Notes under the pieces: generated by a model
Seen by the model: only the letters and a program-made list of their open reading frames with translations
Told to the model about the DNA's origin: nothing
The model's database searches: none
Shown here: piece after piece, positions 2,745 to 60,351 of the stretch
Layout: each line of letters opens with the position of its first letter
Position numbering within the stretch: position 1 is the stretch's first letter
Translations under genes and position numbers: made by a program
DNA from: Alkalihalobacillus sp. LMS39
GTDB lineage: Bacteria; Bacillota; Bacilli; Bacillales; Bacillaceae_F
Reading direction: 5' to 3'
Assembly (NCBI RefSeq): GCF_022812285.1
Contig: NZ_CP093300.1
Coordinates: forward strand, 4,601,171-4,665,170
DNA length: 64,000 bases

Positions 2745-2867
2745 TTCTCATCACCTCGTCAACCATTCTGATCAAATCTAAGAGATTCTATACATTACCT
2801 GAAAAATTTTTTTAGATTTATTTTTCGACAAAGAGTATGAAAATATACATTTTCAAAAAAAATTAAA

Positions 2868-3290
2868 GAAAAACGCGGGAGCTTCTTTTCATTTCAATCG
2901 ATGTGCGGAGCCCTGCCCGCTTTTGAAAGTGAACCCCAAGTGCTATTCTTGCGGAGAAACGCGCAAGTGCGCACCCTTTGCTCTTCTTTAATAATCTTTC
3001 AAAGCTTCGCTGCTAGCCCAAAATTTTTATTCTCCCTCATTTGTCTCATTTTTGCGGTCAGAGCAGCCGTTATTTGTGAACAAGATACGGGTTTCCGTTT
3101 TTTAGCGGCCACAGGAGCGCTTATTCATGCAAAAGCAACTCTATTCCTAGCGATATATTATGATTAACTGCTCCTGTGTCCGCCAACGTTCCAAAACGCT
3201 AGTAATGTTCACAGATAACGGTTTTCATGGCCGCTTACTACATAAACAACAAAATCGCTAACTCGATAAACTCGACCCAAGTGACTATTT
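2868..3290. repeat. Composite dispersed repeat, copy 1 (arm plus hairpin core)
   Basis: This gene-free stretch between spoIID and spoIIQ is a repeat, not a gene. Bases 2868-3029 carry the arm sequence GAAAAACGCGGGAGC ... CCCTGCCCGCTTTT ... CAAAGCTTCGCTGCTAG. Bases about 3053-3270 carry a core that is nearly identical to about 31115-31328. A short third piece of the arm recurs at 3310-3340. The core contains a long two-part inverted repeat (separate entry). No reading frame here looks like a gene. Confidence 0.8.
3067..3221. repeat. 155-nt hairpin core of the composite repeat, copy 1
   Basis: Outer arms CCGTTATTTGTGAACA (3067-3082) and TGTTCACAGATAACGG (3206-3221) pair with one mismatch or G-U. 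Inner arms GCGGCCACAGGAGC (3105-3118) and GCTCCTGTGTCCGC (3170-3183) pair with one mismatch. The same arms at the same spacing occur at 31125-31279. It could be a structured RNA or a non-autonomous mobile element. Confidence 0.75.
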
Positions 3291-15738: not shown

Positions 15739-16923
15739 CTACACCTCCTCATCATGAGGTTCATAGTCTTTGCGTAACGGGTGACCAACCCAGTCATCTG
15801 GCAACATTATTCTCGTTAAATTTGGATGACCTGTAAAAGTAATGCCTAACAAATCATATGCTTCTCGCTCAGGCCAATCCGCCCCTTCCCAAATCGAGGA
15901 AAGAGATTCAATCGTTGGATTTTCACGGTCAATCTTCACTTTTAACGCTACATTTTCTTTTGTTTTAAAAGAATAAAAGTGATTGTATATTTCCATATGA
16001 GTTTCAAAGTCCGATCCATGCAACTCAGATAAATAATCAAAACTTAATTGCTCATTATGCTTTAAAAACTGAGCCACTTTATAATACGATTCTTTTTTTG
16101 CGACTAACGTAGGAACATCTTTAGCCAGTCGGTTGATATAAGAAGCTTCTAACATTCCTTCACCTAGATTATCTTCAATGACTTTTACATACTTATCTAG
16201 TTTTGGTTGGTTGACAGACGGCGTTTCTTCTACTGTTTCCTCCGTTGCCCCCGAACTGGCAGCCTTCGCTCGAGCAGCTGCCGCAGCTTTGGCTTTTGCT
16301 ACTGCAGCAGCCTTTGCTTTCGCTTTTTCATCATCAGTATCGGCTCCACCTTGTGCCGCTATTTTTGCTTTGGCGGCGGCTGCAGCTTTTGCCTTTGCCG
16401 CTGCAATGGCTTTGGCTTTTTCATCGTCTCCAGAAGAATCCGCTTCCGTCCGATTTTGTTTTGCTAATGCGGCCGCTTTCGCTTTTGCCGCTGCTGCGGC
16501 TTTGGCTTTTGCGGCTGCTCCTGCTGGTTCTGAAGTTGTTTCTGTTTCCGCTTCTTTTTGTTTTGCTAGTGCGGCTGCTTTCGCTTTGGCTGCTGCTGCG
16601 GATTTGGCTTTTGCGGCTGCCGCGGCCTTCGCTTTTTCATCTGCTCCTGCTGGTTCTGAAGTTGTTTCTGTTTCCGCTTCTTTTTGTTTTGCTAGTGCGG
16701 CTGCTTTTGCTTTTGCCGCTGCTGCGGCTTTGGCTTTCGCGGCTGCTGCGGCCTTCGCTTTTTCATCTGCTCCTGCTGATTCTGAAGTTGTTTCTGTTTC
16801 CGCTTCTTTTTGTTTTGCTAGTGCGGCTGCTTTTGCTTTTGCCGCTGCTGCGGCTTTGGCTTTTGCGGCTGCCGCGGCCTTCGCTTTTTCATCAGGTGTT
16901 ACTTTTTCCTTATCATCGCTCAT
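15739..16923 (-). CDS. nuoC: NADH-quinone oxidoreductase subunit C with Ala/Lys-rich N-terminal extension
   Basis: The 30-kDa subunit of complex I. The real NuoC domain fills only about residues 245-394 and ends with the family signature [12 protein letters not shown]...[14 protein letters not shown]. Residues about 10-230 are an Ala/Lys repeat ([14 protein letters not shown] blocks). In its first part the unit is 42 aa long, each unit ending in [13 protein letters not shown](S/P)AGA, which is a 126-bp tandem repeat in the DNA. The segment should be disordered or a long charged helix. Extended NuoC proteins are known in Bacillus; the role of the extension is not. The gene overlaps nuoB by 4 bp. 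Confidence 0.95.
16500..16890. repeat. nuoC: 126-bp tandem repeats inside nuoC
   Basis: Three near-identical in-frame units with a period of about 126 bp encode the 42-aa Ala/Lys/Glu/Thr blocks. Their near identity at DNA level, including at synonymous positions, points to recent slippage or unequal exchange. The number of units probably varies between strains. Confidence 0.8.
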
Positions 16924-19940: not shown

Positions 19941-20125
19941 TCGGACATCTATTCCGCTATTTCTCGAATTTTACCGTGTTTTCAAAACTTAACGGACATC
20001 TGTTCCGTTATTTCCGCTTTCAGCGTAATACTCCTACCTGATTCTGGCCATTAACGGAACACATGTCCGATAGGTTTTTGAAAAAGCTATTTTTCCTCCC
20101 AATAACGGAACTGGTGTCCGTTAGG
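19941..20125. repeat. CGGACAT-N3-TTCCG repeat cluster 1
   Basis: Two forward motifs (TCGGACATCTATTCCGCTAT at 19941 and ACGGACATCTGTTCCGTTAT at 19992) are followed by two reverse motifs (TTAACGGAACACATGTCCGA at 20051 and AATAACGGAACTGGTGTCCG at 20101). The forward and reverse copies can pair as nested stems. The same layout occurs at 29966, 43893 and 57763. No gene lies in this stretch. Confidence 0.8.
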
Positions 20126-29965: not shown

Positions 29966-30152
29966 TTCGGACATTTATTCCGCTAATTCTGTAATAAAGC
30001 CGTTCGTTTGGTTCGTATCGGACATCTGTTCCGTTATGGTCCCTTTTTCCGCACGAGAAACAATCAAAAAAGAGGAAGTAACGGAACAGATGTCCGTTAC
30101 GGTTGAAAATACACCAGTTTATATGTAGATAGCGGAACAAATGTCCGATAGC
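29966..30152. repeat. CGGACAT-N3-TTCCG repeat cluster 2
   Basis: Forward motifs at 29968 (CGGACATTTATTCCGCTA) and 30019 (CGGACATCTGTTCCGTTA), reverse motifs at 30079 (GTAACGGAACAGATGTCCGT) and 30130 (TAGCGGAACAAATGTCCGAT). Layout and spacing match cluster 1. It fills the gap between the protease gene and the upp terminator; no gene is present. Confidence 0.8.
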
Positions 30153-30855: not shown

Positions 30856-30974
30856 TATGTTAGCTCCTTTTTTCGCCATTTCTACTATGAGAGCATTCAG
30901 GACGATATACTCCTTTTGAAAATGATACAAAAAAAACTTGTCCCATTCAAGCCTGTTCCTTAAAAGTTCAATAA

Positions 30975-31340
30975 GAAAAACGCGGAAGCGTCTTTTCTTT
31001 CTATGCGAAGTGAGGAGCCCTGCCCGCTTTTAAAAGTGAACCCCAAGTGCTCTTGGACGAAACTCGGAGGTGCGGATCATTCGAGATTATCAGATCCCAT
31101 GTCACATTTTTGCGGACAGAGCAGCCGTTATTTGTGAACATGATACGGGTTCGCATTTATTAGCGGCCACAGGAGCGCTTATTCACGCAAAAGCAACACT
31201 ATTCCTAGCGATATATTATGATTAACGGCTCCTGTGTCCTCCAACGTTCTAAAACGCTAGCAATATTCACAGATAACGGTTTTCATGGCCGCTTACTTAC
31301 CATAAACAACAAAATCGCTAACGCGATAAATCCGACCGAA
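30975..31340. repeat. Composite dispersed repeat, copy 2
   Basis: This gene-free stretch between upp and glyA repeats 2868-3290. The arm part (GAAAAACGCGGAAGC, then CCCTGCCCGCTTTT and GTGAACCCCAAGTGCT) is shorter here, whereas the core from about 31115 to 31328 is nearly identical to copy 1. A further arm copy follows at 31466-31560, so the core is again flanked on both sides. Confidence 0.8.
31125..31279. repeat. 155-nt hairpin core of the composite repeat, copy 2
   Basis: Outer arms CCGTTATTTGTGAACA (31125-31140) and TATTCACAGATAACGG (31264-31279); inner arms GCGGCCACAGGAGC (31163-31176) and GCTCCTGTGTCC (31228-31239). Total length equals that of copy 1 exactly, so the folded architecture is kept while the loops differ by substitution. 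Confidence 0.75.
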
Positions 31341-31465: not shown

Positions 31466-31560
31466 GGAAAAACATGGGAACTCTTATCACTTCAAGCGAA
31501 GTGCAGAGCCTTCGCTCTTCTAGAACAAGCTTTCAAAGCTTCGCTTCTACAACAAAATTT
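31466..31560 (+). repeat. GAAAAACGCGGGAGC arm repeat, further copy
   Basis: Contains GGAAAAACATGGGAACTC, CGCTCTTCTAGAACAAGC and the palindromic AAGCTTTCAAAGCTTCGC, as in 2868-3029 and 43747-43823. No coding potential. Confidence 0.6.
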
Positions 31561-31586
31561 TAATCCTATCTTATCGTTCAACAAAA

Positions 31587-43892: not shown

Positions 43893-44076
43893 TCGGACAT
43901 ATATTCCGCTATTTCTTAAAAAAGGTACCTTTTTCAAATACTATCGGACATTGGTTCCGTTATCTAAGTAAAATGAGCGATTTTTTTTGTTGTTGGAGAC
44001 AAATAACGGAACATATGTCCGTAACTTTTAAAATGGACTCATTTATCATGGAATTACGGAAAATATGTCCGTTAGC
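43893..44076. repeat. CGGACAT-N3-TTCCG repeat cluster 3
   Basis: Forward motifs at about 43893 (TCGGACATATATTCCGCTAT) and 43943 (TATCGGACATTGGTTCCGTT); reverse motifs at 44002 (AATAACGGAACATATGTCCG) and 44053 (ATTACGGAAAATATGTCCGT). It ends 16 bases from the hutG stop codon and may serve as its 3' structure, since no other terminator follows hutG. Confidence 0.8.
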
Positions 44077-50564: not shown

Positions 50565-50669
50565 TGCTTTCAACTCCTTCCGCCCTGAATCTATTCGAAA
50601 CAGAGTTATCTAATCACACATGACGAAATTATACCAAGGTGAGAATGAATTTGCAACTGGAAATCAAAT

Positions 50670-57146: not shown

Positions 57147-57175
57147 CGACAGAAATGAGAGAAAGAGGTAGGGCC

Positions 57176-57688
57176 ATGTTACAAATTTTCCAAACTCAGT
57201 TCATTGGAGTACTAAAACAAATCAAAGAACAAGAAGAAACGATCGAAGAATGTGGCCGTGCTTTGGCTCAAGCAGTTGTCGGAGAAGGAACGATATATAT
57301 AATTGCTGACAGAGAAATGACCCCAATTGCATCAGCCATTGTTCATGCGGATAAAACAAATCGAATCGAAGCTCTTGATAAAGAGAATATTGCTATCATC
57401 ACACCTGCAGACCGAGTCGTTTATTTTACCTCTTATAGTTCAACTGGGGATATGGTTATGGTTGAATCTTTACTTGAACGCCATATTACCGTGATTGGAA
57501 TCGCTGGCAACGACCGTGTTGGTATTGATAAAATGTGTGATTTTTTTATTAATACATGCCTTGTTCAAAGCCTTGTGCCAACTGATGAGGGAGAACGAAT
57601 TGGCCTTCCATTTATTGGTGTTGGATTGTATGTGTTCGAGCTATTGTCATTAGTATTAACAGATATTTTGTTAGAGTATGAAGAGTAA
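57176..57688 (+). CDS. ywjG: YwjG family protein (DUF2529)
   Basis: A 170-aa protein from ATG 57176 (MLQIFQTQFIGVL), with AGAGG seven bases upstream. The fold looks SIS-like (GEGTIYIIADREM, SSTGDMVMVESLLER), which suggests sugar-phosphate binding, but no activity is known to me. It is divergent from spo0F and convergent with pyrG; the B. subtilis gene also lies between these two. Confidence 0.9.
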   Translation: MLQIFQTQFIGVLKQIKEQEETIEECGRALAQAVVGEGTIYIIADREMTPIASAIVHADKTNRIEALDKENIAIITPADRVVYFTSYSSTGDMVMVESLLERHITVIGIAGNDRVGIDKMCDFFINTCLVQSLVPTDEGERIGLPFIGVGLYVFELLSLVLTDILLEYEE

Positions 57689-57762
57689 TAGGCTCTCTTT
57701 GTGCGGATAGGGCTGAACTAGTTGCTTGGTGGTGGCGCCGCGGCCCTGTCCGAGCGTTCGTT

Positions 57763-58660
57763 ACGGACATTTATTCCGCTATTTCTTCAAATACAGGGTG
57801 ATTTCATTTGTTATCGGACATACGTTCCGCTACTTGCCCAAAATGGCGGTTAATCTAGCTTTATTTTTTGTTTTAACGGAACTGATGTCCGAAAGCTCCT
57901 GACAAATTGCCATTTTGCGGCGATTAGCGGAACTCGTGTCCGTTAGAGTGGAGGCGGCGAGCCTCCTGATGCCCCTTTCCCATCACTCACTTCGTTACGG
58001 ACATTTATTCCGCTATTTCATGAAATACAAGGTGATTTCATTTGTTATCGGACATACGTTCCGCTATTTGCCCAAAATGGCGGTTAATCTAGCTTTATTT
58101 TTTGATTTAACGGAACTGATGTCCGATAGCTCCTGACAAATTGCCATTTTGCGACGATTAGCGGAACTCGTGTCCGTTAAAGTGGAGACGGTGAGCCTCC
58201 TGATGCCCCGTTCCCATCACTCACTTCGTTACGGACATTTATTCCGCTATTTCTTGAAATACAGGGTGATTTCATTTGTTATCGGACATACGTTCCGCTA
58301 CTTGCCCAAAATGGCGGTTAATCTAGCTTTATTTTTTGTTTTAACGGAACTGATGTCCGATAGCTCCTGACAAATTGCCATTTTGCAGTGATTAGCGGAA
58401 CTGGTGTCCGTTAAAGTGGAGGCGGCGAGCCTCCTGATGCCCCGTTCCCATCACTCACTTCGTTACGGACATTTATTCCGCTATTTCTTGAAATACAGGG
58501 TGATTTCATTTGTTATCGGACATACGTTCCGTTACTTGCCCAAAATGGCGGTTAATCTAGCATTATTTTCTGATTTAACGGAACTGATGTCCGTTAGCTC
58601 CTGACAAATTGCCATTTTGCAGTGATTAGCGGAACTCGTGTCCGTTAGAGTGGAGGCGGC
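57763..58660. repeat. Tandem array of a 234-bp unit with CGGACAT-N3-TTCCG motifs (cluster 4)
   Basis: Units begin at 57763, 57997, 58231 and 58465, exactly 234 bp apart; the last is cut at about 58660. Each unit has two forward motifs (ACGGACATTTATTCCGCTAT; ATCGGACATACGTTCCGCTA) and two reverse ones (TTAACGGAACTGATGTCCGA; TTAGCGGAACTCGTGTCCGT). Units differ by a few substitutions. Because 234 is a multiple of three, short frames recur in each unit, but these are artefacts. The array fills the gap between ywjG and pyrG. Confidence 0.92.
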
Positions 58661-58687
58661 ATTCCATAAACTCAACAACACACTAAA

Positions 58688-58717
58688 GGGAGCGAAAAGA
58701 ATATTCTTTTCGCTCCC
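58688..58717. terminator. Bidirectional terminator between ywjG and pyrG
   Basis: A perfect 15-bp inverted repeat (GGGAGCGAAAAGAAT/ATTCTTTTCGCTCCC). The plus strand continues TATCTTTTTT, the minus strand TTTAGTG. It ends pyrG and could also end transcripts coming from the repeat array. Confidence 0.8.
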
Positions 58718-58725
58718 TATCTTTT

Positions 58726-60351
<1,626 letters not shown>

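What the first reader, a model, noticed from the sequence alone, without database searches (positions are those of the whole stretch)
57763..58660. Exact 234-bp tandem array of paired inverted motifs between ywjG and pyrG
Four units (the last one truncated) repeat with a period of exactly 234 bp. In each unit two forward and two reverse motifs can form nested stems: the outer pair TAGCGGAA...TGTCCGT and the inner pair AACGGAAC...TGTCCGAT. In unit 4 the second forward motif ends CCGTTA rather than CCGCTA, which pairs Watson-Crick with the TAACGG of the reverse motif. Near identity of units points to recent amplification or active homogenisation. It is not a CRISPR (unit too long, no spacers) and I see no coding. 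Possible roles are protein binding or nucleoid organisation, a transcription barrier between convergent genes, or a selfish repeat.
Basis: seen in the sequence. Interest (0 to 1): 0.8.

Follow-up and report, generated by a model that had tools for sequence, protein, structure and literature searches.

The report
Bacterial repeat with its own protein
The tandem array is a local multiplication of a 179-base element that is scattered through this bacterium's chromosome, carries four copies of one short site at fixed spacing, and in many related bacteria lies beside the gene of one unnamed protein, so the two probably work together.

Summary
The array is real: four complete 179-bp elements joined by 55-bp linkers. 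Each is a copy of a dispersed family (A; an estimated 140-200 copies here) with four polar sites, CGGACA-N4-TTCCGYTA, in F-F-R-R order, 51/59/51 bp apart. Core and geometry recur in other genera while spacers differ. In 14 element pairs shared with a congener, site cores changed at 2.6% of positions and spacers at 13.4%: purifying selection on the sites. Hairpins can form, but copies show little sign of pairing being selected, which favours DNA sites. The congener has one copy at this locus, so the array is a local amplification. A sister family (B) has the same geometry; 34-35 of 35 copies follow the replichore. The main find lies outside the window: a ~215-aa protein without a Pfam or NCBIfam family (nuclease-like plus winged helix, inferred). 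At 23 of 29 loci its gene lies within about 320 bp of a four-site element, and in this genome its two paralogs sort with the two families: one beside A-like, the other beside B-like elements. I read this as a repeat/cognate-protein pair that works like REP/RAYT with unrelated parts. Binding and cleavage are untested.

The parts
57764..57942 (.). unit 1, complete 179-bp four-site element; sites F1 57764-57781, F2 57815-57832, R2 57874-57891, R1 57925-57942
57943..57997 (.). 55-bp linker 1
57998..58176 (.). unit 2, complete four-site element
58177..58231 (.). 55-bp linker 2
58232..58410 (.). unit 3, complete four-site element
58411..58465 (.). 55-bp linker 3
58466..58644 (.). unit 4, complete four-site element (only its linker is lacking)
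19942..20120 (.). single dispersed copy, family A
   Evidence: element at the matching place in G001
29968..30147 (.). single dispersed copy, family A
   Evidence: element at the matching place in G001
43894..44071 (.). single dispersed copy, family A
   Evidence: element at the matching place in G001
31113..31291 (+). four-site element of sister family B (homology extends over 31091-31340)
3055..3233 (+). four-site element of sister family B
57155..57688 (+). ywjG-like gene (177 aa), convergent neighbour on the left
58726..60330 (-). pyrG (534 aa), convergent neighbour on the right
58685..58727 (+). stem with T-run beyond the array, probable intrinsic terminator of the ywjG side
   Evidence: read from the sequence; no experiment

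Best explanation
The unit is a binding and target element for a dedicated protein. Each 179-bp element carries four copies of a polar ~18-bp site (F-F-R-R, 51/59/51 bp) with A- and T-tracts about one helical turn apart in the spacers. A ~215-aa protein recognises the sites through a C-terminal winged helix (inferred), and its N-terminal PD-(D/E)XK-like domain nicks or cuts there (inferred). Repair or replication of cut elements would spread copies and multiply them in tandem, as at ywjG-pyrG (inferred). Copies lie mainly near gene 3' ends and between convergent genes (shown). Their site cores are kept by selection (shown), presumably because the protein goes on binding them (inferred). In G000 one paralog of the protein lies beside family A elements and the other beside family B elements (shown by flanking sequence).
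For: Geometry: F-F-R-R in 102 of 151 site groups formed without preset spacing; a complete chain in 21 of 27 loci, from 12 of 16 other genomes. Core constraint: 20 of 784 core positions changed vs 201 of 1496 spacer positions in 14 pairs; one-branch count 11 departures vs 52 expected, P 1.8e-12. Gene-element linkage: a chain within about 320 bp at 23 of 29 close-homolog loci, including 14 of 14 from pattern-positive genomes; 0 of 8 distant-homolog loci; 0 chains in the same 37 loci read backwards. Sorting: elements beside paralog b match 85-87 of 87 A and 0-1 of 32 B copies; those beside paralog a match 32 of 32 B and 0 of 87 A. Co-occurrence: 11 of 17 pattern-positive vs 15 of 380 pattern-negative genomes have a close homolog (Fisher 9e-11); nine of those 15 have diverged elements beside the gene. 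Elements beside the gene resemble dispersed copies of their own genome more than others on average (0 of 5000 permutations, 9 genomes).
Against: No binding, cutting or movement has been shown. The nuclease assignment is weak: only the distant homologs hit DUF559, below its curated cut-off, and the PDB profile search gave nothing better than E 0.087, all in the C-terminal part. Six of 17 pattern-positive genomes lack a close homolog at my threshold (G075, G122, G211, G212, G270, G394; G270 has a 60% C-terminal piece, G122 is 83% complete), and six of 29 gene loci showed no complete chain. In one search the own genome was the best match for only 3 of 9 genomes, and relatedness was not removed. 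No target-site duplication and no clean empty site. Purifying selection on fixed copies is more than a purely selfish spreader needs.
Confidence: 0.62

Rival explanations
1. The protein binds the elements, but the pair serves the host (nucleoid layout, supercoiling or replication-linked structure); spread is ancient and incidental, and the nuclease-like domain may be inactive.
For: Selection on stationary copies; both paralogs present in G000 and G001 at 92% and 97% identity; family B orientation follows the replichore in 34-35 of 35 copies although 78% of genes are leading; A/T tracts about a turn apart.
Against: Very patchy: strict pattern in 17 of 397 genomes of the order and 0 of 391 sampled outside it; 40 listed copies in G257 at 84-100% identity, so recent multiplication there.
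Confidence: 0.2
2. RNA-level element: transcribed in 3' UTRs, the element folds into a long double stem that tunes mRNA decay or termination.
For: Strong fold of unit 3 as RNA, z -6.66; 30 of 39 tandem cases lie closer to the upstream stop; F1-R1 arms match each other slightly more than shuffled pairs (z 3.47 in 127 rows, z 1.74 in the 82 G000 rows); N4 stretches of F1-R1 and F2-R2 likewise (9 and 42 of 1000 shuffles); one double change at the C/T position of F2 and R2 keeps pairing (1229358).
Against: Spacers A vs C z 0.26, loop halves z -0.17, F2 vs R2 z 0.23; the non-pairing control F1-F2 is as high (27 of 1000); none of the 11 core departures in G001 has a pairing-restoring partner change, as read from the listed sites; 21 of 84 genes have a terminator before the element.
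Confidence: 0.1
3. Ordinary MITE or REP moved by the resident Y1 (RAYT-like) transposase, now decaying.
For: Short, non-coding, inverted ends, many copies; a RAYT-like gene exists at G000:C1:4571783-4572367.
Against: That gene is flanked by its own palindromes (GGGTGTCAG-type) and its 10-kb surroundings hold one lone site with 2 mismatches, no chain; its homologs occur in 15 of 17 pattern-positive and 23 of 31 other genomes examined; cores do not decay.
Confidence: 0.05
4. Bidirectional transcription terminator between convergent genes.
For: Convergent gaps enriched (23 seen, 13.3 expected by length).
Against: One terminator-like site inside the elements of 84 genes examined; intrinsic terminators not rarer beside elements; tandem gaps hold 42 of 68.
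Confidence: 0.03

Closest known systems
REP/BIME repeats with RAYT proteins (PMC3733652: passages and abstract read; PMC2817692 and PMC3116915: search listing only)
   Same: Many dispersed extragenic palindromic repeats, mostly downstream of genes, often in inverted pairs, with a dedicated protein gene beside matching repeats.
   Different: No GTAG/CGTC tag; four sites at fixed spacing; the protein is not a Y1 HUH transposase.
bcr1-bcr18 repeats of the Bacillus cereus group (PMC6542083, PMC3446304, PMC2267715: passages)
   Same: Short intergenic repeats of Bacillus with mobile features.
   Different: bcr1 described there as restricted to the B. cereus group, mobility linked to a TTTAT motif; no dedicated protein in the passages read.
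MITEs (RUP, NEMIS, ERIC and others; named in a passage of PMC3733652)
   Same: 70-300 bp, non-coding, inverted termini.
   Different: No target-site duplication found; site cores constrained in fixed copies; no transposase with matching ends seen.
TnsA of Tn7 (recalled, no call)
   Same: Nuclease-like domain plus winged helix in one protein.
   Different: Sequence relation, TnsB-like partner and transposon ends were not searched for.

Membership tests
REP/BIME with RAYT | GTAG or CGTC tag at the palindrome foot | tested here: not met
   Site consensus CGGACA-N4-TTCCGYTA; flanks T-W-W and W-W-A.
REP/BIME with RAYT | cognate Y1 transposase gene flanked by the repeat | tested here: not met
   The RAYT-like gene is flanked by other palindromes, no four-site chain near it. 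The second Y1 gene, G000:C1:4711594, has no site within the 5 kb read.
REP/BIME with RAYT | dedicated protein gene beside matching repeats (works like) | tested here: met
   23 of 29 loci; paralog-specific sorting, but with an unrelated protein.
MITE | target-site duplication | tested here: not met
   No direct-repeat signal in the flanks of 82 elements; best z 3.5 among about 11,000 offsets tried.
MITE | short, non-coding, terminal inverted repeats | tested here: met
   179 bp, F and R sites at the ends.
MITE | autonomous relative with the same ends | tested here: inconclusive
   No F-F ... gene ... R-R element in sampled DNA; the gene is flanked by whole elements instead.
bcr repeats | sequence match to bcr1-bcr18 | not tested
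   Consensus sequences not held.
bcr repeats | TTTAT motif | tested here: inconclusive
   Flank base counts show no TTTAT consensus.
CRISPR | short repeats with unique spacers, cas genes | tested here: not met
   234-bp unit, linkers nearly identical; cas genes were not searched for.
Rfam RNA families | match at gathering score | tested here: not met
   No A or B copy in the window has one.
Y1 HUH transposase (PF01797) | Y1 domain in the element-associated protein | tested here: not met
   No PF01797 hit for the associated proteins scanned.
DUF559 / PD-(D/E)XK nuclease | profile match and catalytic motif | tested here: inconclusive
   Three distant homologs 18-19.8 bits vs cut-off 20.6; D69, E83 and H90 invariant in 21 aligned proteins, Q or D where K is usual by recall.

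The most novel reading that the evidence does not exclude
A so far undescribed class of bacterial repeat system: a stationary nuclease/winged-helix protein and a genome-wide set of four-site elements that it reads as fixed-geometry docking sites. It spreads and multiplies the elements, co-diverges with them (two paralogs, two families in one chromosome), and uses replication-strand polarity, as family B's replichore-locked orientation suggests.
Probability: 0.35. Interest if true: 0.88.

Novelty: new variant of a known kind. Interest (0 to 1): 0.74.

Why it matters
Dispersed palindromic repeats are common in bacteria; REP/RAYT is, by recall, the best-known case with a dedicated protein. A second, unrelated repeat-protein pair, with rigid geometry and paralog-specific variants in one chromosome, would show that such partnerships arise repeatedly. 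It also makes an old question testable: what keeps such repeats in place, and how do they multiply. The gene is small and easy to delete or purify.

Tried and rejected
Intrinsic terminator role: terminators about as frequent with as without an element. RNA hairpin as the conserved feature: little complementarity beyond column make-up. RAYT-like Y1 transposase as mobiliser. Target-site duplication: none. Empty-site comparison: the G001:C10 element near 72775, facing the window at about 38230, was not clean; the G001 place for G000 1273223 did not align. Family A orientation against replichore: significant but far from perfect (threshold 20: left 27+/4-, right 6+/9-, P 0.0017), and G257 is mixed. 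Plasmids: no DNA match to A or B, one 30% protein hit. Phages: no match to B DNA or the protein. Viral contigs: no pattern hit and no protein relative. Solved structures, PADLOC, PHROGs, NCBIfam: nothing informative. Nine literature searches showed no description of this element or protein in the rows seen; several listings were capped (20 of 30 shown, 10 of 4,107, 12 of 19, 10 of 489, 10 of 27), and most rows were unrelated.

Limits of my own counts: one search mixed a few rows of other genomes into a set named G0; one search repeats it with the 82 G000 rows. Gene caller and terminator finder are home-made. The chain finders accept only narrow spacing, so the grouping is the fairer count for geometry. 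In one search some of the chains counted sit at 9 to 11 of the 11 mismatches allowed. Of the close hits, 29 loci were examined; two more G020 hits had no locus. Of 23 distant hits, 8 had loci. The 52 expected is slightly high, as C/T positions can change without counting. Stretches of G000 were partly chosen around hits; 19 stretches not chosen around A hits gave 29 A and 32 B per Mb, and some of these were picked at B hits. Copy number is an estimate from these densities, from 781/4 sites and from 146 exact F1-F2 pairs per strand.

Full report
1. Tandem Repeats Finder gives 57757-58660, period 234, 3.9 copies, 95% matches. The array lies between convergent ywjG-like (57155-57688 +) and pyrG (58726-60330 -) genes. 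Every unit has a complete 179-bp element; three 55-bp linkers join them, and only the last linker is missing. The four units differ at 14 of 179 positions: 12 in spacers, one in an N4 stretch, one at the C/T position of a site.

2. It is one locus of a dispersed family. The motif CGGACA-N(3-7)-TTCCGYTA has 781 exact hits in this genome (G000), 591 in the congener G001 and 3 in G002, with 0 control hits in these three. Each element is F1-F2-R2-R1 with starts 51/59/51 bp apart; 87 family A elements were found in the G000 DNA held, 48 with exactly this spacing and the rest within 2 bp per step, which is also about what the finder allows. Grouping sites without preset spacing gave F-F-R-R in 102 of 151 groups. 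The window holds three single copies besides the array.

3. The array is a local amplification. G001 has one element at the same ywjG-pyrG place. A second G000 array (three units, 214-215 bp apart, at C1:1229358) also faces one element in G001. Tandem arrays occur too in G232, G094, G058 and G127.

4. The site cores are under selection. Of 15 A loci in alignable G000/G001 regions, 14 have an element at the matching place. Divergence: core 20 of 784 (2.6%), N4 stretch 35 of 224 (15.6%), spacer 201 of 1496 (13.4%), flank 559 of 2157 (25.9%); core vs spacer P 7e-20. Because G000 elements were chosen for good cores, I also counted only departures on the G001 side: 11 seen, 52 expected at half the spacer rate, P 1.8e-12.

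5. What is conserved looks like DNA sites rather than a hairpin. A unit folds well as RNA (z -6.66) and as DNA (z -6.11). But in 127 elements the facing spacers match no better than shuffled pairs (z 0.26), nor do loop halves (z -0.17) or whole F2/R2 sites (z 0.23); F1/R1 shows a small excess (z 3.47; z 1.74 with the 82 G000 rows). For the N4 stretches alone F1-R1 and F2-R2 exceed shuffles weakly (9 and 42 of 1000), but so does F1-F2, which does not pair (27 of 1000). One pair shows a double change at the C/T position of F2 and R2 that keeps pairing (1229358). Outside the sites mainly A-tracts and T-tracts are shared, about one helical turn apart.

6. Where the elements lie. Counting arrays once, 42 elements are in tandem gaps, 23 in convergent, 3 in divergent, against 40.8, 13.3 and 13.9 expected by length (P 4e-4); in tandem gaps 30 of 39 are closer to the upstream stop, median 51 vs 157 bp. 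Genes with an element do not lack intrinsic terminators.

7. Sister family B. Window copies at 3055-3233 and 31113-31291 have the same 51/59/51 geometry but another sequence. The genome search listed 40 matches, the cap, at 88-100% identity. In the large stretches held, some chosen around known copies, 35 copies were found: 16 on the minus strand up to 2.33 Mb, 19 on the plus strand from 2.516 Mb. GC skew flips between the 2.51-2.53 and 2.60 Mb stretches, so 34 or 35 of 35 follow the replichore; 78% of 1100 called genes are leading. Family A orientation also depends on the replichore, but far less strictly.

8. Distribution. With a strict F1-F2 pattern, 17 of 397 genomes of the order, in 13 of 135 genera, are positive; of 391 sampled phylum members outside the order none is. 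Spacers differ between genera while geometry persists: 21 of 27 loci, from 12 of 16 other genomes, have a complete chain. Viral contigs gave no pattern hit; plasmids showed no DNA similar to A or B, phages none similar to B (A not tried).

9. The associated protein. One G000 gene (a; C1:1176096-1176743, minus strand, 216 aa) sits between two four-site chains of B type. Its paralog b (C1:4244716-4245354) sits between two of A type. Close homologs (50% identity or more, 190 bits or more) occur in 26 of 397 genomes: 11 of 17 pattern-positive and 15 of 380 pattern-negative (Fisher P 9e-11). Of the loci examined, 29 from these 26 genomes, 23 have a chain within about 320 bp of the gene, 7 of them on both sides; this includes all 14 loci of pattern-positive genomes. 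Eight distant-homolog loci have none, and the 37 loci read backwards have none. Nine of the 15 pattern-negative genomes (G013, G138, G372, G047, G204, G127, G154, G178, G248) carry diverged elements beside the gene. Without a chain: G033 (R-pairs only), G004, G348, G020, G312 and the partial G079.

10. Cognate sorting. Elements beside G000 paralog b match 85 and 87 of 87 A copies and 0 of 32 B copies (G001 ortholog: 85 A, 1 B); elements beside paralog a, in G000 and G001, match 32 of 32 B and 0 of 87 A. Across nine genomes, elements beside the gene resemble dispersed copies of the same genome more than those of other genomes on average (0 of 5000 permutations as high), though the own genome is the single best match in only 3 of 9 and relatedness was not removed.

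11. What the protein may be. No Pfam, NCBIfam, PHROG or PADLOC family is reached convincingly. The C-terminus gives weak winged-helix hits; three distant homologs give DUF559, a PD-(D/E)XK nuclease-like family by recall, at 18-19.8 bits against a cut-off of 20.6. D69, E83 and H90 are among the invariant residues of 21 aligned proteins. The fold is therefore inferred, not shown.

12. Reading. The best account is a repeat with a cognate DNA-binding, possibly DNA-cutting, protein. Shown: geometry, core constraint, gene-element adjacency, paralog sorting, local amplification. Inferred: binding, cutting, spread by repair or replication. It works like REP/RAYT, but is not a member: the tag and the Y1 transposase are absent, and the resident RAYT-like gene has other palindromes beside it. 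Whether it overlaps the bcr1-bcr18 repeats by sequence could not be tested.

Noticed in passing
G000:C1:4571783-4572367 (L198:3780-4367): RAYT-like Y1 transposase gene flanked by GGGTGTCAG-type palindromes, a separate repeat system of the same genome.
   Followed up: partly
window 2866-2947, 2965-3040, 30973-31054, 31499-31574: Further repeat modules beside the B copies; the B copies seem to sit in mosaics of several repeats.
   Followed up: no
G257 loci L208-L237: Four-site elements embedded in a larger mosaic repeat with an extra outer inverted motif.
   Followed up: partly
G000:C1:1100001-1200000: No family A element found in 100 kb, followed by 13 (3 of them one array) in the next 80 kb.
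   Followed up: no
window 16257-16912: Long in-phase repeats of 24 and 126 bp, probably an alanine-rich coding sequence.
   Followed up: no
window 50574-50605 (-): L31-Firmicutes ribosomal protein leader, the only Rfam gathering-level hit in the window.
   Followed up: no
loci L274, L275, L277, L284, L313-L316: Distant homologs of the associated protein (33-39% identity) without four-site chains; a sister family with perhaps another target.
   Followed up: partly
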